From contig JADGPX010000002.1 of the NCBI GenBank assembly GCA_017882215.1, positions 1-37,638 on the forward strand: DNA of 37,638 bases, read 5' to 3'. The notes below the pieces were generated by a model. The model was not told the DNA's origin and made no database searches. It was given only the letters and a program-made list of their open reading frames with translations. This stretch comes from Chitinophagaceae bacterium. GTDB taxonomy: Bacteria > Bacteroidota > Bacteroidia > Chitinophagales > Chitinophagaceae. This document shows positions 5,244 to 34,153 of this stretch, piece after piece (the first letter of the stretch is position 1; each line of letters opens with the position of its first letter). Made by a program: the position numbers and the translations under genes.

Positions 5244-5349
5244 ATTATTATTTCGCTTTTAGCTTAGAGCTGCGAGCATTGAGCTCTAAGCAATTTTACT
5301 TAATTAATTTTCTTACTCACAGCTTGCAACTGTAAGCTCATGGCTTTGA

Positions 5350-8300
5350 TTATTCAAATTTAAGATCCAATCCTAAGCCTCTTAATTCATGAACCAATAC
5401 ATTAAATGATTCAGGAACACCTGGTCTTGGAATATTATCACCTTTAACGATCGCTTCGTAAGTCTTCGCTCTTCCGATAATATCATCTGATTTTAAAGTC
5501 AACAATTCCTGCAGAATGTTTGATGCACCATAAGCTTCCAAAGCCCATACTTCCATTTCACCAAATCTTTGACCACCAAATTGTGCTTTACCACCAAGAG
5601 GTTGCTGGGTAATTAAGCTGTAGGGTCCGATTGAACGGGCATGCATCTTATCATCAACCATGTGGTGAAGTTTTATCACATAGATAATTCCAACCGTTGC
5701 TTTCTGATCAAAACGATCTCCGGTTTCACCGTCATACAAATAAGTATGACCGAATAATGGAAGACCTGCTTTAGCAACCTGCTCTGCAATTTCATCAACA
5801 GAAGCGCCATCAAAAATTGGCGTTGCGAATCTTATTCCCAGTTTTTCACCTGCCCAGCCGAGAACAGTTTCATATATCTGCCCCAGGTTCATACGGCTTG
5901 GTACACCGAGTGGATTTAATACAATATCAACAGGAGTTCCGTCTTCAAGGAAAGGCATATCTTCCTGGCGAACGATCTTTGCTACGATACCTTTATTTCC
6001 GTGACGACCTGCCATCTTATCTCCCACTTTAAGTTTACGCTTAACAGCGAGATAAACTTTAGCAAGTTTTAAAACACCGGCTGGTAGTTCATCCCCGATA
6101 GAGATGTTGAATTTTTCTCTCTTATATCTTCCTAACTCTTCGTTGTATTTAATGTTGTAGTTGTGCAATAACGTATTGATGTGATCGTCTGTTTTTGCAT
6201 CACCGCTCCATCCCAAAGGATTTACATTTTGAAAATCAATGTTAGCAAGGTTCTTAGCAGTTATCTTAGCGCCTTTTCCAATCAATACTTCACCAAAATT
6301 ATTGCTGATACCGGCTGAAGTTTTATCTTTTAATAGAGTAAGGAGTTTGCTTATCAATACTTCTAAAAGATCGGTTTCATTCTTCTCATGTGTCTTTTCA
6401 ATTTTTTCTAAAGAAGCTTTTTCTTTAACTTTTCCGTTCTTATCTTTCTTAGCCCTTTGAAATAATTTTTTATCAATAACAACACCTTCTGTTCCGCTTG
6501 GCGCTTTTAAAGACGCATCTTTTGCATCACCGGCTTTATCACCAAATATTGCTCTTAATAATTTTTCTTCAGGAGTTGGATCGCTTTCACCTTTAGGGGT
6601 TATTTTACCAATGATGATATCTCCTTCTTTTACATGAGCGCCAATTCTTATAACACCATTCTGATCCAGATCTTTGGTAGCTTCTTCACTTACGTTAGGA
6701 ATATCAGGGGTTAATTCTTCCTCTCCCAATTTTGTATCACGAACTTCCAATTCAAATTCATCAATATGTATAGAAGTAAACAAATCTTCTTTCACTACTT
6801 TTTCGCTGATAACAATAGCATCTTCAAAGTTGTAACCCTTCCATGGCATAAATGCCACTTTAAGATTACGACCAAGCGCTAATTCACCATCTTTTGTAGC
6901 ATAACCTTCAGTTAAGAAGTCACCTTCTTTTACTGCCTGACCTTTTTTAACTGCAGGACGAAGGTTAATGCAGGTTGCCTGATTCGTTTTTATAAATTTG
7001 GTAAGCTTGTAAACAATTAAGTCTTCATCAAAGCTTATCAATTTTTGTGTTTGATTTCTGTTGTAGCGAACATGAATTTCATTAGCATCAACATATTCAA
7101 CAACTCCATCTCCATCAGCATGAATTTGGATTCTTGCATCACGTGCAGCCTTTGCTTCCAATCCTGTACCAACAATCGGCACTTCGGGACGGATCAATGG
7201 AACTGCCTGCCGTTGCATGTTTGAGCCCATCAATGCACGGTTAGCATCATCATGCTCAAGGAAAGGAATTAATGAAGCACTTAGACCAACAATTTGGTTT
7301 GGTGCAACGTCCATGTATTCAACTTCATTCTTATCCAGGATCGGAAAATCACCAGTTTGTCTTGATTTTACTTTTTCCTCAATGAAATTTCCTTTCTCAT
7401 CTATCTCTACGTTTGCCTGCGCAATTTTTTTGGTATCTTCTTCTTCAGCACTTAAGAAAGTTACTTTTTTCATATCCACTTTACCATTATTTACCTTATG
7501 GTAAGGTGTTTCAATAAAGCCCATTTCATTGATCTTTGCATGCACACAAAGTGTAGATATCAAACCAATGTTTGGACCTTCAGGAGTTTCAATTGTACAA
7601 AGACGACCATAGTGAGAATAGTGTACGTCACGAACCTCAAAGCCTGCTCTCTCACGACTCAAGCCACCGGGTCCTAGCGCTGAGATACGACGCTTGTGCG
7701 TAATCTCTGACAATGGATTTGTTTGATCTAAGAATTGAGATAACTGTGATGTACCAAAGAATGAATTGATAACAGAAGATAATGTTCTTGCATTAATCAA
7801 ATCTACCGGAGTAAATACTTCGTTATCACGAACGTTCATCCTTTCACGGATGGTACGTGCCATACGTGCAAGACCAACACCAAATTGAGCATATAACTGC
7901 TCACCCACTGTTCTTACACGACGGTTACTTAAATGATCAATATCATCAATCTCACTTTTAGCATTGGTTAACAACACTAAATATTTTATGATAGCGATGA
8001 TATCTTCTTTGGTTAATGTTTTTTTCTCAATAGGATAATTTAAACCAAGCTTTCTGTTGATCTTATAACGACCAACTTCACCAAGATCATAACGCTTATC
8101 ACTAAAGAATAATTTATCGATAATACCTCTTGCAGTTTCATCATCTGGTGCATCAGCGCCACGCAATTGACGATAAATGTGCTGCACCGCTTCTATCTCA
8201 CTGTTGGAAGTATCTTTATTTAATGTGTTGTAGATAATTGCATAATCACCGCTCACTTCTTCTCTTTGAATGAAAACACTTTTTACATTCAACTCAAGAA

Positions 8301-9159
8301 TCATTGCTACATTTTCTTGATCAAGAATGGTGTCTCTTTCAAGAACGATCTCATTTCTTTCAAGACTTACTACTTCGCCGGTATCTTCATCCACAAAATC
8401 CTCTACCCAGCTGCGAAGCACACGGGCTGCTAATCTTTTACCAAGATTTGCATTCAACGTTTTTTTATCAGCCTTTACTTCTACTGCCATTCCAAATAAT
8501 TCCAAAATGTCTTTATCAGTTTCATAACCGATAGAACGCAGTAAAGTGGTTACAGGAAATTTCTTTTTGCGATCAATGTAGGCATACATCACATTGTTAA
8601 TGTCTGTAGCAAACTCCATCCATGCACCTTTAAAAGGAATTACTCTTGCTGAATAAATTTTTGTTCCATTGGGATGTGTTGACTGACCAAAGAATACCCC
8701 GGGAGAACGATGTAATTGAGAAACGACAACTCTTTCGGCGCCATTGATAACAAAAGTACCACGTGGTGTCATGTAAGGAATATTTCCTAAGAAAACATCC
8801 TGAACAATGGTTTGAAAATCCACATGTTCTTCATCGTTACAACTAAGGCGGAGCTTGGCTTTTAAAGGAACAGCATAGGTTAATCCTCTTTCAATACATT
8901 CTTCAATTGTGTAACGTGGAGGATCAACAAAATAATCAAGAAACTCCAATACAAAAATGTTACGGGTATCGGTGATAGGAAAATTTTCCTTGAACACACG
9001 GAATAAACCCTCAACATTTCTTTTGTCTGGTGTAGTTTCTAATTGAAAAAAATCTTTAAATGATTGGATTTGAATTCCAAGCAAATCGGGAGTCTCTGCC
9101 AGATGTTCAATTTTTCCGAAGTTGATTCTTTTGGCAGGAGCTACTTTAGTTGAAGCCAT
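5350..9159 (-). CDS. rpoB: DNA-directed RNA polymerase subunit beta
   Basis: 1269 aa; [17 protein letters not shown] and [27 protein letters not shown] motifs. Confidence 0.99.
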
Positions 9160-9247
9160 ATTGTAGTTAAAACTTTTAAAGTGTAGAAGTGCCTATAACC
9201 GGATTTAAAAACAGGCATAAAGCCACCAATCCGAAATTAAAGGAGTG

Positions 9248-9255
9248 CAAAAGTA
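9248..9255 (-). promoter_or_regulatory. Candidate Bacteroidota -7 box (TACTTTTG) upstream of rpoB
   Basis: Minus-strand TAnnTTTG-type match 5' of rpoB. Confidence 0.5.
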
Positions 9256-9356
9256 AGGAAAATTATCCAAAAATTTAATAACCAATTCCTAATTGATAAG
9301 AATTTAATTTATTTTTTGTATTATTCTCTATTTTCTGCAATTTATTATCAACGTAT

Positions 9357-9384
9357 AAAAGCCAGAGATTGCTCCCCGGCTTTT
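9357..9384 (-). terminator. Hairpin between rplL and rpoB (terminator/attenuator candidate)
   Basis: Inverted repeat aaaagcc...ggctttt immediately 3' of rplL on the minus strand. Confidence 0.5.
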
Positions 9385-9403
9385 AAAGCTTCTTGCTAAT
9401 TAA

Positions 9404-9781
9404 TTATTGAATTTCTACGTCAGCACCAGCTTCTGTAAGCTTATTCTTAATTTCCTCTGAAGTGGCTTTATCAACACCTTCTTTTATTGGTTTTGGAGCG
9501 CCATCAACTAAATCTTTAGCTTCTTTTAAACCAAGACCAGTAAGCTCTTTAACGATCTTTACTATGCCTAATTTATTAGCACCAGGAGATTTAAGAATAA
9601 CATTGAAAGATGTTTTTTCTTCAACTGCCGCTGCACCTCCGCCACCATCAACTTCACTTGCTACAACTGAAACTGCTGCCGGTTCAATACCATATTCTGT
9701 TTTTAAAAATTCAGCTAATTCCTGAACTTCTTTTACTGTTAAGCCTACTAAGTTTTCAGCTAATTGTTTTACGTCTGCCAT
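9404..9781 (-). CDS. rplL: 50S ribosomal protein L7/L12
   Basis: 125 aa; Ala/Gly-rich hinge and C-terminal '[22 protein letters not shown]'. Confidence 0.98.
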
Positions 9782-9807
9782 GATTGTTGTTTTTTTTCCG
9801 ACTTCTT

Positions 9808-9825
9808 ATCCCGAAGCTTCGGGAT
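9808..9825. repeat. 18-bp perfect palindrome ATCCCGAAGCTTCGGGAT
   Basis: Exact self-reverse-complement in the rplJ-rplL spacer; near relative at 11729-11746. Confidence 0.8.
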
Positions 9826-9857
9826 CCGCCGGATGGTTTATTAAAAAATTATTTAAC

Positions 9858-9888
9858 CCTAACCCTAAAGGGGAATATTTAGGGATGA
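9858..9888. repeat. Degenerate copy of CCCCT-hairpin palindromic element
   Basis: accctaaccctaaaggggaatatttaggg resembles ...CCCCTAAAT..CCCCT.AAGGGG... elements seen elsewhere in the window. Confidence 0.5.
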
Positions 9889-9915
9889 TCTATTTAATAG
9901 GGATGATCTATTTAA
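9880..9915. repeat. Two perfect tandem copies of an 18-mer (TAGGGATGATCTATTTAA)
   Basis: Direct reading: 9880-9897 and 9898-9915 identical. Confidence 0.9.
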
Positions 9916-9945
9916 AATAAAAAATTCAAATTTAAACATAACACT

Positions 9946-9974
9946 TTAAGCCCCTTCAGGGGTTTGGGGTGTTC
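9946..9974 (-). repeat. CCCC-hairpin palindromic element forming the rplJ 3' end and stop codon
   Basis: Minus strand: CACCCCAAACCCCTGAAGGGGCTTAA; same layout as the leu/ilv elements. Confidence 0.75.
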
Positions 9975-10452
9975 TATTTTGTAAAGCACCTAACACTCGC
10001 TGAATTGGTGCCTGTAATAAACTGATAACTTCACTAATCAATTCATTTTTAGTTTTGATCTTAGTTAAAGCTGTAAGTTGGTTATCTCCAATAAAAATAT
10101 CGCCATTAAGAAAAGCAGCTTTTAAAACGGGCTTTTCTCCATTTATTTCTTTACGAAAACTGCTGATGATAATTGCCGGCTCTTTAGGGCTTTCACTAAA
10201 CATTAATGCAGTTACTTTATGCAATGAATCATAAACACCTGCATACTTTTCACTATCTAAACTTTCCAATGCTTTTTTTATCAATGTATTTTTAGCAACC
10301 TTTACTTCAACCTGTTTATTAAAACAATGCCTGCGTAAATTTGTTATTTGCGCTACAGATAAATTTTCTGTATCTGTAATATAGAAGTTAGTATACTGAG
10401 AAAACTTGCCTTTCAGCGCTTCAATTACTTCTTGTTTTTCTTCTCTTGTCAT
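9946..10452 (-). CDS. rplJ: 50S ribosomal protein L10
   Basis: L10 family; natural start likely MTREEKQEVIE at 10452 rather than the longer ORF; C-terminus 'NRTPQTPEGA' is encoded by a palindromic element. Confidence 0.95.
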   Translation of the reverse strand: MTREEKQEVIEALKGKFSQYTNFYITDTENLSVAQITNLRRHCFNKQVEVKVAKNTLIKKALESLDSEKYAGVYDSLHKVTALMFSESPKEPAIIISSFRKEINGEKPVLKAAFLNGDIFIGDNQLTALTKIKTKNELISEVISLLQAPIQRVLGALQNRTPQTPEGA

Positions 10453-10503
10453 AAAAATATTTTTAGATGGTTTGTGAATACACAAACCTTGGCGAATTAA
10501 AAT

Positions 10504-11193
10504 TTAACTCTGTACAGATTTTGTATCAATTACAATACCCGGGCTCATTGTACTAGCCATACTCAATCCTTTCAAATAAATTCCTTTAGAACTTGAAGGT
10601 TTTAATTTCATTACAGTATTGATAAGTTCCTGGCTATTTGCTTCAATCTTTTCCGGAGGAAAACTTACCCGTCCAATAGAGGCATGAATAATTCCTACCT
10701 TATCAACTTTAAACGAAATTTTACCGCCTTTTACATCATTAACTGCAGCAGCTACATCATTTGTAACAGTTCCTGTTTTAGGATTTGGCATAAGATTACG
10801 AGGACCTAATACTTTACCCAACCTGCCAATTTTAGGCATCACAGAAGGTGTAGCAACTATTACATCAACATCTGTCCAGCCACCTTCAATCTTTGTAATA
10901 AATTCATCCAAGCCTACATAATCAGCGCCGGCAGCCCTTGCAGCTTCTTCTTTATCAGGAGTGCAAAGCACCAATACTCTTTTAGTTCTTCCTGTACCAT
11001 GAGGTAATGAAACTGTTCCTCTTACTGCCTGGTCTGCTTTTTTAGGATCAACACCTAAACGAATATGCAGATCAACTGAACTATCAAATTTTGTTGTATT
11101 AACTTCTTTTACCAAAGCAGATGCTTCTTTAAGAGAATAGGTTTTGTCTTTCTCTATTTTAGCATTGGCAACTTTTCTTTTTTTAGTGATCAT
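10504..11193 (-). CDS. rplA: 50S ribosomal protein L1
   Basis: 229 aa; [22 protein letters not shown] motif. Confidence 0.99.
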
Positions 11194-11232
11194 TTTTTAA
11201 TATTTTTTGCCGTGTTAAGGCAGATGTTGTAA

Positions 11233-11676
11233 TTAATTTTCCCAGGGAGCTTTACCTTCAACAGTTAAGCCCATACTGCGTGCTGTACCTGCAATCATAC
11301 TCATTGCGCTGTTAAGACTGAAAGCATTGAGATCTTCCATTTTATCCTTGGCAATTTCTTCTACCTGTGCCCAGGTAACTTTACCAACTTTTGAGCGATT
11401 GGGTTCTTTACTGCCGCTTGCAATTTTTGCAGCATCTTTTAATTGTACTGCAGCGGGAGGAGTTTTAATTACAAAATCAAATGATTTATCACCATAAACT
11501 GTAATGAGAACAGGAAGAACTTTTCCCTGTTTATCCTGTGTTCTTGCATTAAATTGTTTGCAGAACTCCATGATATTGATTCCTTTGGAACCGAGTGCCG
11601 GACCGATTGGCGGTGCCGGATTAGCTTGTCCTCCTTTACATTGGAGCTTAACAAAGCCTGTTACTTCTTTTGCCAT
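11233..11676 (-). CDS. rplK: 50S ribosomal protein L11
   Basis: 147 aa; [33 protein letters not shown]. Confidence 0.99.
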
Positions 11677-11697
11677 ATTTTACTTTTTTGGTGTTAG

Positions 11698-11716
11698 CGT
11701 GGCGCTTTTAGCGCCA
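11698..11716. repeat. Hairpin gtggcgc-tttta-gcgccac
   Basis: Perfect 7-bp inverted repeat in nusG-rplK spacer. Confidence 0.7.
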
Positions 11717-11728
11717 CTCCCAATAACA

Positions 11729-11746
11729 ATCCCGAAACTTCGGGAC
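11729..11746. repeat. Imperfect palindrome ATCCCGAAACTTCGGGAC
   Basis: Near-identical to the 9808-9825 palindrome. Confidence 0.7.
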
Positions 11747-11767
11747 TAAAGAACTTTTTTGGGAGGG

Positions 11768-11775
11768 CAAAGGTA
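11768..11775 (-). promoter_or_regulatory. Candidate -7 box (TACCTTTG) upstream of rplK
   Basis: Minus strand TAnnTTTG. Confidence 0.45.
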
Positions 11776-11879
11776 GGGAAATAATTTATAATTTAATAAT
11801 TGATAATGGAGAATTTTAGAAAATACTTCTAAAACAAAAGCCATCTTTTTAGATGATCTTAATTATACAATAATTTTAA

Positions 11880-12548
11880 TTACCCTAATTTTTCTACCTG
11901 CATATAATTTAATTCCACAGGTGTTGCTCTTCCAAAGATTTTAACCTGAACTTTTAGTTTCTTTTTCTCATCATTTACTTCTTCTATCACACCATTAAAG
12001 TCGTTGAAAGGTCCATCAATAATTTTAATTGTTTCACCAATAATGAAAGGCTCACTCATCTTAATACCGCTTGCATCAGCCATTTCATCAACCTTACCAA
12101 GCATTTTATTTACTTCTGCCTTACGAAGAGAAATAATGTTGCCTTTTGAACCTTTACCATCAGTTAAAAAATGCATTACATTACTGATGTTGCTAAGGTG
12201 CTGAACCATTTCATCAGAAAGTTTTCCGTTCTCCACTTCTATCATTACATATCCTGGATAGAAATTTCTTTCTCTCATTACCTTTTTACCATTCTGTACT
12301 TTATACACTTTCTCTACAGGCAAAAATATTTGTTTTATAATCTTATCCCATCCGTTACGAATGATGTCTTTATCTAAATACTCTTTTACTTTACGTTCCT
12401 TTCCACTAACCACTCTCAGCACATACCATTTGCTTTCCTTTTCAGGGATAATTTCCTTTTCAGAAGTAGTTTCATTTGCTGATCCTTCATTTTCAGGTAT
12501 TGCTTCTTCAACCTGGTTTGTTTCTTCTATATTAGTTGTTTCTTCCAT
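11880..12548 (-). CDS. nusG: Transcription termination/antitermination protein NusG
   Basis: 222 aa; KWYVLRVVSGKERKVKEYL...FYPGYVMIEV, KOW motif GPFNDFNGVIEEV; acidic N-terminal extension of about 38 aa. Confidence 0.97.
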   Translation of the reverse strand: MEETTNIEETNQVEEAIPENEGSANETTSEKEIIPEKESKWYVLRVVSGKERKVKEYLDKDIIRNGWDKIIKQIFLPVEKVYKVQNGKKVMRERNFYPGYVMIEVENGKLSDEMVQHLSNISNVMHFLTDGKGSKGNIISLRKAEVNKMLGKVDEMADASGIKMSEPFIIGETIKIIDGPFNDFNGVIEEVNDEKKKLKVQVKIFGRATPVELNYMQVEKLG

Positions 12549-12549
12549 T

Positions 12550-12744
12550 TTATTTAAATAAAGAATAAATAAATTTTAGTATTCCGCTAATGCCAAAGTC
12601 CATAACCCCAACGATAGCTGTTATAAAAAGAGTTGCCACTAAAACGATCATGGTAGACTGTTGTAATTGTTCCCAATTTGGCCAGGTTACTTTTTCTCCC
12701 ATCTCTTTATAGGAGTCTCTTATGTATGCTGATATTTTATTCAT
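12550..12744 (-). CDS. secE: Preprotein translocase subunit SecE
   Basis: 64 aa, 'SYKEMGEKVTWPNWEQLQQSTMIVL', one TM helix, between tRNA-Trp and nusG. Confidence 0.95.
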   Translation of the reverse strand: MNKISAYIRDSYKEMGEKVTWPNWEQLQQSTMIVLVATLFITAIVGVMDFGISGILKFIYSLFK

Positions 12745-12764
12745 AATTAATTTTATTTACCGGG

Positions 12765-12835
12765 CACGGGCACAAGGATTCGAACCCTGATCAAAGGTTT
12801 TGGAGACCTCTATTCTACCATTGAACTATGCCCGT
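12765..12835 (-). tRNA. tRNA-Trp (CCA)
   Basis: Cloverleaf on minus strand: acceptor acgggca/tgcccgt, anticodon loop ctCCAaa, T-loop ggttcgaatcc. Confidence 0.95.
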
Positions 12836-12923
12836 ATTAAAAGTCAATAGTCATTGGTCAATTGTCACTGGAAGTCCTAATGACGGTTGACTAATGACTA
12901 ATGACGTATACGAAATTACAATT

Positions 12924-14111
12924 TTATTTCAGAATTTCTGTAACCTGTCCTGCACCTACTGTACGTCCACCTTCACGAATTGCGAACTTCAATCCTTTTT
13001 CCATCGCAATTGGCTGAATCAACTTAACAATAAGGTTTGTATTATCACCTGGCATAACCATTTCAGTTCCTGCTGGTAATTCAACTTCACCTGTAACGTC
13101 AGTTGTACGGAAATAAAACTGAGGGCGGTATTTTTGGAAGAATGGAGTATGACGTCCGCCTTCTTCTTTGCTTAATACGTAAACCTCACCTTTAAATTCA
13201 GTATGCGGAGTAATTGAACCCGGCTTGCAAAGTACCATACCACGACGGATCTGGTTCTTTTCAATACCACGCAACAATAAACCTGCGTTATCTCCTGCTT
13301 CACCTTCGTCCAAAAGTTTTTTAAACATCTCAACACCTGTAACAACAGATTGTAATGGCTTTTCCATCAAACCTACTATTTCAACAGCATCACCAACTTT
13401 AATCTTTCCTCTTTCAATACGACCAGTAGCAACAGTACCACGGCCTGTAATTGAAAATACGTCCTCAACACTCATTAGGAAAGGCTGATCAACCGGACGG
13501 GGAGGTAATGGAATATATGTATCAACAGCTTCCATTAATTCATCAATCTTAGCAACCCATTTTGCATCGCCGGCTAAAGCACCTGTTGCAGAACCCTGAA
13601 TGATAGGTGTATTATCACCATCAAATCCATAAGAAGTTAATAACTCACGAATTTCCATTTCTACTAATTCCAACAATTCAGGATCATCAACCAGATCTAC
13701 TTTATTCATAAACACAACGATACGAGGAACACCTACCTGGCGAGCCAAAAGAATGTGTTCTTTAGTTTGAGGCATAGGACCATCTGTAGCAGCAACCACT
13801 AAGATTGCGCCATCCATTTGAGCGGCGCCTGTGATCATATTCTTCACATAATCGGCGTGACCCGGACAGTCAACGTGTGCATAGTGGCGATTAACCGTTG
13901 AATATTCCACGTGAGCAGTATTAATAGTGATACCCCTTTCTTTTTCTTCAGGTGCACCATCAATCTCATCATAGTTTTTCTTTTCTGCCAAACCTTTTTT
14001 AGACAAAATATCGGTTATAGCGGCGGTTAATGTGGTTTTACCATGGTCAACGTGACCTATAGTACCAACGTTAACGTGGGGTTTATCCCTTTTAAAATTC
14101 TCTTTTGCCAT
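12924..14111 (-). CDS. tuf: Elongation factor Tu
   Basis: 395 aa; [41 protein letters not shown]. Confidence 0.99.
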
Positions 14112-14280
14112 TTTATTTGTTTTTTAATATGTGTTTTAAAAATTATGTTACCAGCTTAATATTCTTTCATCATCTTCATTGGTGTCGATTTCTTGTACAT
14201 CAGTTCTTTATTCATCAATTAAAGTCATTAGGTCAATCAAGAAATCAATGACAAATGACTTATTGACTTTTAGCGAGAAG

Positions 14281-26189: not shown

Positions 26190-27671
26190 ATGCAAAAGAA
26201 CAGTAAATCTTTAGATTCTTCAAAAGTTCCCTCCACCGGAGGGGATTTAGGGGAGGCTATGGGTAAAACATTGTTTGAAAAAATATGGGAAAAGCATTTA
26301 GTTAAATCCATACCAGACGGGCCTGATGTTATTTATATTGATAAACATTTTATTCATGAAGTAACAAGCCCGCAGGCTTTTGCCGGAATTGAAAAAAGAG
26401 GATTTAAAATATTCCGTCCAAACCAGGTCGTGGCTACCGCCGATCATAATGTGCCAACAATCAACCAGCATTTACCTATTAAGGATATGTTATCAAGATT
26501 ACAGGTAGATCAATTGATAGAGAATTGCAGCAAACACGGAATAGAATTATATGGACTTGGACATCCTTTTCAGGGAATAGTTCATGTGATTGGTCCTGAA
26601 TTAGGGATCACTCAACCGGGAATGACAATTGTTTGCGGAGATAGCCATACATCCACCCATGGCGCATTTGGCTCAATCGCTTTCGGAATAGGAACCAGTG
26701 AAGTTGAAATGGTTTTTGCATCGCAATGTGTTTTGCAAAGCAGGCCTAAAGTAATGCGGATAAATATTAATGGCGAATTGAATAAAGGAGTTGTTTCAAA
26801 AGATATTATTCTATACATCATTTCAAAAATAAAAGCAAGTGGCGCAACAGGATATTTTGTTGAGTATGCAGGCTCGGCAATCAGAAGCCTTTCTATGGAA
26901 TCACGAATGACCGTTTGTAATATGAGTATTGAAATGGGTGCAAGAGGTGGAATGATAGCGCCCGATGAAACAACATTCAATTATATAAAAGGCAGAAAGT
27001 TTGCTCCGCTGGCTGGCGGAGAAGAATGGGATAAGAAATTAAATGAATGGAAAAAGTTACACACTGATGATGATGCTGTTTTTGATAAGGAAATAAATAT
27101 AAATGCTGCTGACATAGAGCCGATGATAACCTATGGTACTAACCCGGGATTAGGTCTTGCAATAAACGGGTTAATACCTACTGCTGAAAGTATTTCTGAT
27201 GAGGGTGAAAGAAAAAATATTCTGAAAGCCCTGGAATATATGGGTCTGCAACAAGGCAAAGCCTTATTGGGAATGCCGGTTCAAAATATATTTATAGGAA
27301 GTTGTACTAATTCAAGAATTGAAGATCTAAGATTAGTTGCAGGTGTTGTAAAAGGTAAAAAGAAAAGTGAGCATGTGAAAGTGATGATCGTTCCGGGATC
27401 ACAACAGGTGGCTGCACAAATTAAAGCAGAAGGTCTGGATAAAGTTTTTGAAGAAGCAGGATTTGAAGTGCGGCAGGCGGGGTGCAGCGCATGTTTGGGA
27501 ATGAATGAAGATAAAATTCCTGCAGGCGAATATTGTATTTCTACAAGTAATAGAAATTTTGAAGGCAGGCAGGGAGCAGGTGCAAGAACGTTATTGGCAA
27601 GTCCTTTAACGGCAGCTGCTTCGGCTATAACAGGAGTAGTAACTGATGTAAGAAACCCCCTGTCCCCCTAA
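26190..27671 (+). CDS. leuC: 3-isopropylmalate dehydratase large subunit
   Basis: [51 protein letters not shown]; start may instead be ATG 26259. Confidence 0.97.
26211..26258 (+). repeat. Palindromic element, reverse orientation (leuC 5' end)
   Basis: ttagattcttcaaaagttccctccaccggaggggatttaggggaggct; 44/48 identical to 28279-28326. Confidence 0.9.
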
Positions 27672-27683
27672 AGGGGGAACTTA
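27652..27683 (+). repeat. Palindromic element, forward orientation, contains leuC stop codon
   Basis: gaaaccccctgtccccctaaagggggaactta; TAA at 27669-27671 is in the hairpin loop. Confidence 0.9.
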
Positions 27684-27777
27684 GATTGGAGCTACTTTAT
27701 TTCTTTTGATAGTTCTTATAGTTAATGATTATGAAATTAACTCCGTAGAATGAAAAAATAAAAAACGAATTAGAAAA

Positions 27778-28437
27778 ATGTCAGAACAGAAAAATGAAAA
27801 TACAAAATTAGGTTCCCCCTTCAGGGGGGCAGGGGGTTTCACTTCCAGGTTTGTTCCTCTACCATTGGAAAATGTTGACACGGATCAAATAATTCCTGCA
27901 CGCTTTTTAAAAGCTACTACCCGTGAAGGCTTTGGTAAAAACCTTTTTCGAGACTGGCGTTATCAGAATAATGATGAGACCAAACCAAAAAAGGATTTTG
28001 TTTTGAACCAACCTGAATATGAAGGGAAAATTTTTGTGGCAGGAAAAAATTTTGGTTGTGGCTCTTCACGGGAACATGCTGCATGGGCAATTCTTGATTA
28101 TGGTTTTAGGGTTGTTGTGTCCAGCTTTTTTGCCGACATCTTTAAAAGCAATTCTTTAAATAATGGTCTTTTACCGGTACAGGTAAGTGAAGAATTTCTT
28201 CAAAAAATATTTAAAGCGGGCACAAAAGATCCGTTAACCAGGTTAGAAGTAAATCTTGAGCAACAAACTATCAAAATATTAGATTCTTCAAAAGTCCCTT
28301 CTACCGGAAGGGATTTAGGGGAGGCTTTTGAGATCAGCAGTTACAAAAAAAATTGCCTGCTAAATGGTTATGATGATATTGATTATTTAGTAAGCATTAA
28401 GTCAGATATAGAATCTTTTGAAAAACAACTTGCATAA
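27778..28437 (+). CDS. leuD: 3-isopropylmalate dehydratase small subunit
   Basis: [48 protein letters not shown]; carries two element-encoded segments. Confidence 0.97.
27809..27840 (-). repeat. Palindromic element, reverse orientation (leuD N-terminus)
   Basis: Reverse complement is 29/32 identical to 27652-27683. Confidence 0.9.
28279..28326 (+). repeat. Palindromic element inserted inside LeuD coding sequence
   Basis: Encodes [16 protein letters not shown] between 'EQQTIKI' and '[21 protein letters not shown]'. Confidence 0.92.
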
Positions 28438-32262: not shown

Positions 32263-32287
32263 ATCCCCCTGAAGGGGGACTTAAGGA
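32253..32287 (+). repeat. Palindromic element, forward orientation, contains ilvD stop codon
   Basis: taccccctaaatccccctgaagggggacttaagg; TAA at 32260-32262. Confidence 0.9.
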
Positions 32288-32371
32288 AACTTTTAAAGAG
32301 AATAGAATCTGCAATGGGAACAAATAAAAAGTTTAAAAGAATTTAAAAGCAAACAAATAAAAAATGATTGT

Positions 32372-34153
32372 ATGTCCATAATACAAAATATAACAAAGTT
32401 GAAAAAAAATGAGGAAGCTGCCGGGTTCCCCCTTAAGGGGGCGGAGGGAGTATTTAATGACATTGTTGAATTGAGTGGATCGCAGGCAGTGATGCACGCT
32501 TTTCTTGCGGAAGATGTCGAAATAATTTTTGGCTATCCGGGTGGAGCGATCATGCCTATCTATGATGCATTGTATGATTTCACTGATAAGATGAAACATA
32601 TTTTAGTCAGGCATGAGCAGGGTGCAATCCATGCTGCACAAGGCTATGCAAGAACTTCCGGTAAAACCGGAGTTGTGTTTGCAACCAGCGGCCCTGGTGC
32701 AACAAACCTGGTTACAGGACTTGCTGATGCAATTATTGACAGCACTCCGGTGGTTTGTATCACGGGACAGGTATTTGCTCATTTATTAGGAACAGATGCT
32801 TTTCAGGAAGTGGATATAATTAATATAACAACACCGGTTACCAAATGGAATTACCAGGTAACTGATGCATCAGAAATTCCCGGGGTATTGGCAAAGGCAT
32901 TTTTTATTGCAGGAAGCGGAAGGCCCGGCCCGGTGTTGATCGACATCACCAAAAATGCGCAACTGCAAAAATTTAATTTTGAAGGATATAAGAAATGCGA
33001 TTTCATCCGCAGCTATCGTCCCAAGCCTGTTATTCGCAAATCAAATATTGAACAGGCTGCTGCACTCATCAATGCTGCTGAAAAACCATTTGTGTTATTT
33101 GGACAAGGTGTAATTCTTGGTAAGGCTGAAAAGGAATTTAAAAATTTTATTGAGAAAGGAGGTCTTCCTGCCGCATGGACAATTCTTGGATTGAGCGCTT
33201 TACCAACTGATCATCCTTTGAATGTTGGTATGCTGGGCATGCATGGAAATTATGGACCCAATGTGCTTACAAATGAATGTGATGTTTTGATTGCAGTAGG
33301 AATGCGTTTTGATGACAGAGTTACCGGCAGGCTTGATAAATATGCAAAGCAGGCAAAAGTAATTCACCTTGATATTGATCCATCAGAAATAGATAAAAAT
33401 GTGAAAGCAACAATAGGCGTATGGGGCGATTGTAAAGAAACCCTTCCTTTGCTCACAGAGTTGCTGGAACAAAAAAATTATCCTCAATGGCTTGATCGTT
33501 TTAAGCAATATAAAACCGAGGAGGAAGAAGCTTGTATATTTCCTGAATTCAATCCCGCAACAGAAGAAATTTCTATGGGAGAAGTAATAAACGTTTTGAA
33601 TGAATTAACAAAAGGCGATGCTGTAATTGTTACCGATGTTGGTCAGCACCAAATGGTAGCCTGCCGTTATGCAAAATTTAACCAGTCAAAAAGCAATATT
33701 ACTTCCGGAGGAGCAGGCACTATGGGTTTTGGATTACCTGCTGCAATTGGCGCAAAGTATGGTGCACCGCAAAGAACAGTAATTGCAATTATTGGTGATG
33801 GCGGTTTTCAAATGACGATACAGGAATTGGGTACCCTTATGCAAACCAAGCTTGATGTAAAAATTCTTATACTTAACAACCGGTTTTTAGGAATGGTAAG
33901 GCAATGGCAGGAATTGTTTCATGAGAAGCGCTATTCGTTCGTAGATATTACCAGTCCTGATTTTGTACAGGTTGCAAAAGGATATTATATAGATGGCAAA
34001 AGTATTTCGGAAAGAGAAAAACTAAAAGATGCTTTACAGGAAATGTTAGATCATAAAGGACCATACCTTCTTGAAGTAATGGTAGGAAAAGAAAATAATG
34101 TATTCCCCATGGTAGCACAGGGAACAAGTGTTGCAGAGATCAGGTTAAAATAA
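32372..34153 (+). CDS. ilvB: Acetolactate synthase large subunit
   Basis: EIIFGYPGGAIMPIYDALYDF, GPGATNLVTGLADA; N-terminal extension with element. Confidence 0.97.
   Translation: MSIIQNITKLKKNEEAAGFPLKGAEGVFNDIVELSGSQAVMHAFLAEDVEIIFGYPGGAIMPIYDALYDFTDKMKHILVRHEQGAIHAAQGYARTSGKTGVVFATSGPGATNLVTGLADAIIDSTPVVCITGQVFAHLLGTDAFQEVDIINITTPVTKWNYQVTDASEIPGVLAKAFFIAGSGRPGPVLIDITKNAQLQKFNFEGYKKCDFIRSYRPKPVIRKSNIEQAAALINAAEKPFVLFGQGVILGKAEKEFKNFIEKGGLPAAWTILGLSALPTDHPLNVGMLGMHGNYGPNVLTNECDVLIAVGMRFDDRVTGRLDKYAKQAKVIHLDIDPSEIDKNVKATIGVWGDCKETLPLLTELLEQKNYPQWLDRFKQYKTEEEEACIFPEFNPATEEISMGEVINVLNELTKGDAVIVTDVGQHQMVACRYAKFNQSKSNITSGGAGTMGFGLPAAIGAKYGAPQRTVIAIIGDGGFQMTIQELGTLMQTKLDVKILILNNRFLGMVRQWQELFHEKRYSFVDITSPDFVQVAKGYYIDGKSISEREKLKDALQEMLDHKGPYLLEVMVGKENNVFPMVAQGTSVAEIRLK
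32424..32450 (-). repeat. Palindromic element, reverse orientation (ilvB N-terminus)
   Basis: gggttcccccttaagggggcggagggagt; translated GFPLKGAEGV in a frame different from the leuD copy. Confidence 0.85.

What the first reader, a model, noticed from the sequence alone, without database searches (positions are those of the whole stretch)
9808..9974. Repeat pile-up between rplJ and rplL, including an element-encoded L10 C-terminus
Within 170 nt of an essential ribosomal operon there are, in order, an 18-bp perfect palindrome just upstream of rplL, a degenerate CCCTAA/AGGGG element, two perfect tandem 18-mers and a palindromic element that supplies the last residues and stop of L10 (..ALQNRTPQTPEGA). 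The L10 C-terminal helix is the L7/L12 docking site (established), so replacement of its tail could matter. The spacer also separates two subunits made in unequal stoichiometry, so the structures could tune rplL output.
Basis: partly seen in the sequence, partly recalled or inferred. Interest (0 to 1): 0.62.

Follow-up and report, generated by a model that had tools for sequence, protein, structure and literature searches.

The report
Kink-turn RNA switch before rplL
The palindrome in front of the ribosomal gene rplL is the tip of a conserved RNA hairpin with a kink-turn, found directly before rplL across one bacterial family (Chitinophagaceae), and it probably lets the L10-L12 protein complex switch off L12 synthesis; the other repeats in the spacer are ordinary dispersed or local repeats.

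Summary
The repeats are really there, but they are two unrelated things. (1) The 18-bp palindrome before rplL (9808-9825) is the upper stem of a conserved RNA (about 9789-9857, minus strand): U-run and unpaired UAA, 5-bp helix, kink-turn core GGA/NNNGAA, variable upper stem, then an A-run at -9 to -16 of rplL that can pair with the U-run. A covariance model finds it in 138 of 249 family genomes, once each, and every checked hit (94 of 94) ends 4-12 nt before the rplL start. The kink-turn core is kept while its helices covary. Many relatives carry a second such kink-turn directly before rplJ. Kink-turn plus unpaired UAA is the published signature of the L10(L12)4 binding site in rplJL leaders. 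Best reading: an L10(L12)4 autorepression site dedicated to rplL, unrecorded in Rfam and in the papers searched. Ligand and repression are inferred. (2) The CCCCTTCAGGGG element ending rplJ is one of 63 dispersed REP-like palindromes in this genome. It supplies only TPQTPEGA, a predicted disordered tail that is hypervariable in relatives; the L12-docking helix is intact. The tandem 18-mers are unique to this locus, in a roughly 100-nt expansion of the spacer that left the kink-turn untouched.

The parts
9789..9857 (-). whole rplL-upstream RNA element (match to covariance model R1)
   Evidence: 65.3 bits, E 3.3e-8 genome-wide, only hit in the genome
9843..9848 (-). U-run, 5' half of the outer helix (stem 2)
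   Evidence: conserved UUUUU(UU)AA in relatives; can pair with the A-run 9790-9797
9838..9843 (-). unpaired UAA (present twice: UAAUAA)
   Evidence: UAA within 14 nt upstream of the kink-turn helix is part of the descriptor; UAA plus kink-turn is the published L10(L12)4 recognition signature (PMC4538822)
9828..9832 (-). CCGGC, 5' strand of the helix below the kink-turn (NC stem)
   Evidence: pairs with GUCGG 9798-9802; 99.4% of cells paired over 68 sequences against 92.0% when shuffled, with UA, GU, AU and UG replacements
9825..9827 (-). GGA, non-bulged side of the kink-turn core
   Evidence: GGA retained in the rplL elements recovered while the helices vary
9809..9824 (-).
   Evidence: sequence of this stem is free in relatives but pairing is kept
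9803..9808 (-). UAAGAA: 3-nt bulge plus GAA, bulged side of the kink-turn core
   Evidence: NNNGAA retained in relatives
9798..9802 (-). GUCGG, 3' strand of the NC stem
   Evidence: covariation with 9828-9832
9790..9797 (-). A-run at -9 to -16 of rplL, 3' half of stem 2; overlaps the A-rich positions -11 to -14 that favour initiation in Bacteroidota
   Evidence: sequence; PMC6847099
9404..9781 (-). rplL (L7/L12), the downstream gene
   Evidence: Pfam Ribosomal_L12 and Ribosomal_L12_N
9946..10452 (-). rplJ (L10); residues 161-168 TPQTPEGA encoded by a REP-like element
   Evidence: Pfam Ribosomal_L10; AlphaFold model
9940..9973 (.). REP-like palindrome AACACTTTAAGCCCCTTCAGGGGTTTGGGGTGTT overlapping the rplJ 3' end
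   Evidence: one of 63 genomic copies of the core; matches the AAGCCCCTTTAGGGGTTTGGGGT subfamily elsewhere in the genome
9857..9873 (.). degenerate second REP-like half (CCCTAACCCTAAAGGGG), inverted relative to 9951-9961
   Evidence: 91% complementary over 11 nt
9880..9915 (.). two identical tandem 18-mers, unique to this locus

Best explanation
The element directly before rplL is a cis-regulatory RNA that folds into a kink-turn hairpin with an unpaired UAA and acts as an internal binding site for the L10(L12)4 complex. When the complex is in excess over free 23S rRNA it binds the kink-turn and UAA. That stabilises the weak outer U-run/A-run helix, buries the A-rich enhancer at about -9 to -16 of rplL, and lowers L12 translation. 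Many relatives have an equivalent kink-turn before rplJ, whose outer helix pairs the rplA stop region (AACUAA) with UUAGUU at the rplJ start; this genus keeps only the rplL site. Shown here: the conserved element, its position, its uniqueness per genome, its kink-turn sequence signature and covarying helices. Inferred: kink-turn geometry, ligand, repression and the A-run burial step. The REP-like element at the rplJ end and the tandem 18-mers are separate passenger repeats.
For: Relatives show the same element at the same place. The covariance model hits 138 of 249 family genomes, once each, and all 94 hits whose rplL coordinates were listed end 4-12 nt before rplL on the same strand. A kink-turn+UAA descriptor matches 63 of 95 rplL-upstream and 23 of 83 rplJ-upstream regions, against 0.0 and 0.1 expected from dinucleotide shuffles. 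GGA/NNNGAA is kept while the helices change on both sides (covariation 0.313 against 0.103 shuffled). In rplJ leaders, UUAGU(U) at the start codon goes with the kink-turn (21 of 22, against 2 of 61 without the called element), giving a second pairing. Kink-turn plus unpaired UAA is the published L10(L12)4 signature (PMC4538822; PMC10931766). The E. coli rplJ leader folds with the same parts: CCGUC-GAAGA-C, UUAAUCC, GACGG. In Flavobacterium johnsoniae, adenines at -11 to -14 and an unstructured start region favour initiation (PMC6847099), which is where the A-run lies. Sites before both rplJ and rplL point to their joint product as ligand. An independent set of named genomes shows the element in Ferruginibacter, Flavisolibacter, Niastella, Paraflavitalea and Parafilimonas.
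Against: No binding or expression data. In the window A9825 can pair with U9808, which competes with the ideal kink-turn register; the minimum-energy fold shows that pair and does not form the U-run/A-run helix. The outer helix is nearly invariant U-A pairs, so it has little covariation, and one clade uses UUAACC...GGUUAA instead. The UAA of the rplJ element coincides with the rplA stop codon, so it is not independent evidence there. A large minority of the family lacks the element and has an unrelated GGCUUCCAAG motif before rplL.
Confidence: 0.68

Rival explanations
1. The element is a conserved translation-tuning structure for rplL without a protein ligand: a fixed stem that sets initiation rate or protects the mRNA 5' side after cleavage, helping the 4:1 L12:L10 ratio.
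For: Tight, fixed spacing to the start codon and overlap with the translation-initiation region fit any initiation-tuning structure. The ligand is inferred.
Against: A plain stem does not need a conserved GGA/NNNGAA internal loop and UAA while helix letters change. A second kink-turn before rplJ points to a shared binding protein.
Confidence: 0.15
2. The kink-turn binds another protein (a kink-turn binder of the L7Ae/YbxF type, or another ribosomal protein such as L1 or L11 encoded in the same operon).
For: Kink-turns are bound by several protein families (general knowledge). The operon also encodes L11 and L1.
Against: The sites sit before rplJ and rplL, the genes of the known kink-turn-plus-UAA binder, and carry the UAA that marks that complex.
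Confidence: 0.1
3. The palindrome is only a dispersed repeat (TCCCGAANNTTCGGGA, 13 copies in the genome) that landed before rplL together with the REP-like elements; no conserved function.
For: It is a member of a dispersed palindrome set, and two REP-like units lie next to it.
Against: Relatives with other upper-stem sequences keep the rest of the structure at the same position. The covariance model has one hit per genome, unlike a repeat. The repeat only fills the stem whose sequence is free.
Confidence: 0.04
4. The spacer structures form an intrinsic terminator or attenuator between rplJ and rplL.
For: A stable hairpin lies in an operon between genes of unequal output.
Against: No terminator-like site on the sense strand; two only on the opposite strand. 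The U-run precedes the hairpin and an A-run follows it.
Confidence: 0.03

Closest known systems
L10(L12)4 ribosomal leader of rplJL operons (Rfam RF00557 L10_leader; E. coli and B. subtilis rplJ leaders)
   Same: Kink-turn with 3-nt bulge and GA core, nearby UAA on the non-bulged strand just 5' of the helix, same operon, same presumed ligand.
   Different: Placed between rplJ and rplL, hard against the rplL start. Loop closure is permuted: here the C stem carries the hairpin loop and the outer A-U helix is open, while in E. coli the C stem is open and the helix beside the UAA is closed. No Rfam hit in the operon.
Other ribosomal leaders of Bacteroidota (L13, S4, S15, S16; Eckert and Weinberg 2020, PMC7247131)
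   Same: Lineage-restricted, covarying structure upstream of a ribosomal protein gene.
   Different: None of those 20 candidates lists L10 or L12 as ligand.
Kt-7-type kink-turns
   Same: GGA opposite NNNGAA, i.e. 3-nt bulge followed by tandem G-A, A-G and a further A-G pair (comparison from general knowledge).
   Different: Found in mRNA; bending and Mg2+/protein dependence not tested.
REP elements with Y1 transposases (RAYT)
   Same: The CCCCTNNAGGGG elements are short dispersed palindromes with a G-rich side arm; the genome has 5 Y1_Tnp matches.
   Different: Link between these palindromes and a given transposase not tested; one copy here forms the end of a coding sequence.

Membership tests
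ribosomal leader (r-leader) | structured RNA consistently upstream of a ribosomal protein gene | tested here: met
   94 of 94 checked hits end 4-12 nt before rplL
ribosomal leader (r-leader) | covariation supporting the secondary structure | tested here: met
   covariation score 0.313 against 0.103 shuffled and at most 0.091 when slid; helix pairing above all 500 shuffles
ribosomal leader (r-leader) | binding by the encoded protein reduces expression | not testable with these tools
   needs binding and reporter assays
L10(L12)4 leader | kink-turn motif | tested here: met
   GA/NNNGA core flanked by two helices in 63 of 95 rplL-upstream regions, 0.0 expected; sequence signature only
L10(L12)4 leader | unpaired UAA next to the kink-turn helix | tested here: met
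   present in the window (UAAUAA 9838-9843) and in the rplL elements counted; at rplJ it coincides with the rplA stop codon
L10(L12)4 leader | match to Rfam RF00557 | tested here: not met
   no match in 5300-14200 at E up to 5; elsewhere in the genome only sub-threshold matches
L10(L12)4 leader | position in the 5' leader before rplJ | tested here: not met
   in this genus the region before rplJ has a simple hairpin and no kink-turn; the element is before rplL. 22 other relatives do have one before rplJ
kink-turn | 3-nt bulge followed by tandem sheared G-A pairs between two helices | tested here: met
   sequence pattern
kink-turn | sharp bend on ion or protein binding | not testable with these tools
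   needs FRET, gel or structure
REP element | many dispersed short palindromic copies | tested here: met
   63 against 0 control
REP element | dedicated RAYT transposase | tested here: inconclusive
   5 Y1_Tnp matches in the genome, link to this repeat not tested
intrinsic terminator | GC-rich hairpin followed by a U-run on the transcribed strand | tested here: not met
   no sense-strand site

The most novel reading that the evidence does not exclude
Chitinophagaceae run a two-site autoregulation of the ribosomal stalk operon: separate L10(L12)4 kink-turn sensors sit at the rplJ and the rplL start codons, the rplL one with a permuted loop closure, so that L12 output can be set independently of L10. 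Some genera, this one included, keep only the rplL sensor.
Probability: 0.5. Interest if true: 0.7.

Novelty: new variant of a known kind. Interest (0 to 1): 0.57.

Why it matters
L12 is the ribosomal protein needed in several copies per ribosome, and how cells make more L12 than L10 from one operon is usually assigned to translation efficiency alone. A dedicated kink-turn sensor at the rplL start would give a direct, testable feedback loop on L12. It would be a leader found inside an operon, placed on a start codon without a Shine-Dalgarno sequence, and a natural rearrangement of the same protein-binding site.

Tried and rejected
Single functional 'repeat pile-up': rejected, the parts have different histories. 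L10 docking helix replaced: rejected. Intrinsic terminator: rejected on the sense strand. Known Rfam family: none. Internal promoter: sigma-70-like scan empty; the Bacteroidota -7 motif TANNTTTG occurs at chance level, one copy at about 9927-9934(-). 23S mimicry: the H42 region of one relative was read; a CGA-GA bulge on the 3' strand suggests the same strand polarity as here, but without a structural assignment it was left as inconclusive. The RF00557 consensus was only visible through a sub-threshold chance match, so the E. coli leader was used for comparison instead. Helix counts come from related sequences, so shuffles overstate independence; the slid-register control and the independent genome set were used to offset this. 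Kink-turn sites in other families of the order were looked for by descriptor and not found.

Full report
The window is part of a contig of a Bacteroidota genome whose closest named relatives by rplL are Ferruginibacter (Chitinophagaceae). The stretch lies between rplJ (L10, 9946-10452, minus strand) and rplL (L7/L12, 9404-9781, minus strand), within nusG-rplK-rplA-rplJ-rplL-rpoB.

The repeats fall into separate classes. CCCCTNNAGGGG occurs 63 times in this 2.95-Mb genome against none for the reversed pattern. The copy at 9951-9962 has the same arms as a subfamily reading AAGCCCCTTTAGGGGTTTGGGGT elsewhere in the genome, and the genome has five Y1-type transposase matches; this is a REP-like element. 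TCCCGAANNTTCGGGA occurs 13 times against none for the control. The tandem 18-mer occurs only here. In the three nearest relatives the rplJ-rplL spacer is 60-81 nt and lacks the REP-like units and the 18-mers; here it is 164 nt. So about 100 nt were probably added on this lineage.

The L10 tail. Across 85 L10 sequences from the fetched loci (one is the window's own) the conserved part ends near LLQxPxxRVxxAL and is followed by a tail of very different length, often rich in A, P and E. In an AlphaFold model of the window protein built on an alignment of 35 sequences, a helix runs from residue 135 to 158 and residues 161-168, exactly the REP-encoded TPQTPEGA, have pLDDT below 50. The docking helix is therefore not replaced. 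The element has overwritten a tail that varies freely.

The conserved element. Aligning the region upstream of rplL in relatives shows a shared block just before the start codon: UUUUUUUAA, a few bases, a 5-bp helix such as CCGCC/GGCGG, GGA on the 5' side and NNNGAA on the 3' side, an upper stem of free sequence, then AAAAAA. GGA opposite a 3-base bulge plus GAA is the sequence signature of a kink-turn with three tandem non-Watson-Crick pairs (general knowledge). The helix changes on both sides: CG, UA, GU, AU and UG forms in the lower helix, GC, UA and CG at the base of the upper stem. On the 20-sequence alignment the covariation score is 0.313, against 0.103 when shuffled and at most 0.091 when slid.

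A covariance model built from 20 sequences finds one hit, never more, in 138 of 249 genomes of the family. For all 94 hits whose rplL position was listed, the hit ends 4-12 nt before the rplL start on the same strand. In a class-wide draw of 396 genomes only members of this family are hit. Forty family genomes without a hit were read: some carry the same kink-turn in a variant with UUAACC before and GGUUAA after the helix, plus an extra hairpin; the others lack it and have a GGCUUCCAAG motif. In named genomes it is present in Ferruginibacter, Flavisolibacter, Niastella, Paraflavitalea and Parafilimonas, and not found in Flavobacterium, Pedobacter, Sphingobacterium, Mucilaginibacter or Bacteroides.

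A second site. Reading the rplA-rplJ spacer of the same relatives gave a second kink-turn: UAAUCCUGG-UGA-stem-AAUGAC-CCGGG or UAAUCCUGU-GGA-stem-AAUGAA-ACAGG. A descriptor made of UAA, a 5-bp helix, the kink-turn core and at least two pairs of upper stem matches 63 of 95 rplL-upstream and 23 of 83 rplJ-upstream regions, against 0.0 and 0.1 expected from dinucleotide shuffles. The same descriptor gives 31 other matches in about 608,000 strand-bases of the loci, so a single match means little; the clustering at these two sites is the evidence. In 21 of 22 rplJ elements UUAGU lies in the bases just before the start codon, complementary to ACUAA at the rplA stop; UUAGUU ends 2 of 61 rplJ leaders without the called element, and one of those two (L020) has a kink-turn that the caller missed (sequence inspection). 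This genus has only a simple hairpin before rplJ.

What it most likely does. In Firmicutes and Enterobacteria the L10(L12)4 complex recognises a kink-turn in the rplJL leader, with an unpaired UAA shown to matter in Geobacillus, and binding lowers expression, by attenuation in B. subtilis and at translation in E. coli (PMC4538822; PMC10931766). The E. coli leader folds with the same parts in the same strand order, but with the loop closing the other end: there the helix beside the UAA is closed and the kink-turn C stem is open; here the C stem is closed and the outer U/A helix is open. In Bacteroidota, which lack Shine-Dalgarno sequences, adenines at -11 to -14 and an unstructured start region favour initiation (PMC6847099). 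The A-run of the element lies at -9 to -16 of rplL in the window and is the partner of the U-run. Binding that stabilises this weak helix would bury the enhancer. This last step is inference; the minimum-energy fold of the window RNA alone does not form that helix, which would fit a helix that needs the protein but does not show it.

Alternatives. A terminator is unlikely, as no sense-strand site was found. A pure repeat is excluded by single-copy occurrence and fixed position. A ligand-free tuning structure or another kink-turn binder cannot be excluded, but explains the conserved internal loop and the paired sites less well.

Status. The element's existence, position, conservation and sequence signature are shown. 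Ligand, geometry and repression are inferred. Rfam had no match, and the paper searches found no report of a leader between rplJ and rplL; subscription papers are mostly not in that library. It is filed as a new variant of a known kind: it works like an L10(L12)4 leader, but fails the family's location and Rfam-model tests.

Noticed in passing
L025, L028, L034, L035, L082, L085, L105, L109, L116, L152 (just upstream of rplL): Relatives without the kink-turn share a different motif, GGCUUCCAAG followed by an AU-rich stretch; also seen once in another family of the order. Possibly an older or alternative rplL leader.
   Followed up: partly
L089, L095, L103, L108, L112, L118 (upstream of the kink-turn): A clade has an extra hairpin with covarying stem (GCCAC/GUGGC, GCCUC/GAGGC, GCCCU/AGGGC) and conserved loop like UGAGGUUAAAAU before the rplL kink-turn.
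   Followed up: no
L029, L030, L031 (upstream of rplL): Some genera have an upstream hairpin loop GCCUGA complementary to CAGGC in the kink-turn's apical loop, a possible loop-loop contact.
   Followed up: no
window 11730-11745: Another copy of the TCCCGAA..TTCGGGA palindrome lies between nusG and rplK.
   Followed up: no
window 27665-27827 and 32266-32440: Two further pairs of CCCCTNNAGGGG palindromes about 150-160 bases apart.
   Followed up: no
L029, L030, L031, L034, L036 (L10 C-terminus): Some genera and the outgroup have a longer ordered-looking L10 C-terminus (for example GGKLASLVKALEERAN) that others replace by low-complexity tails; it may bear on L12 copy number.
   Followed up: no
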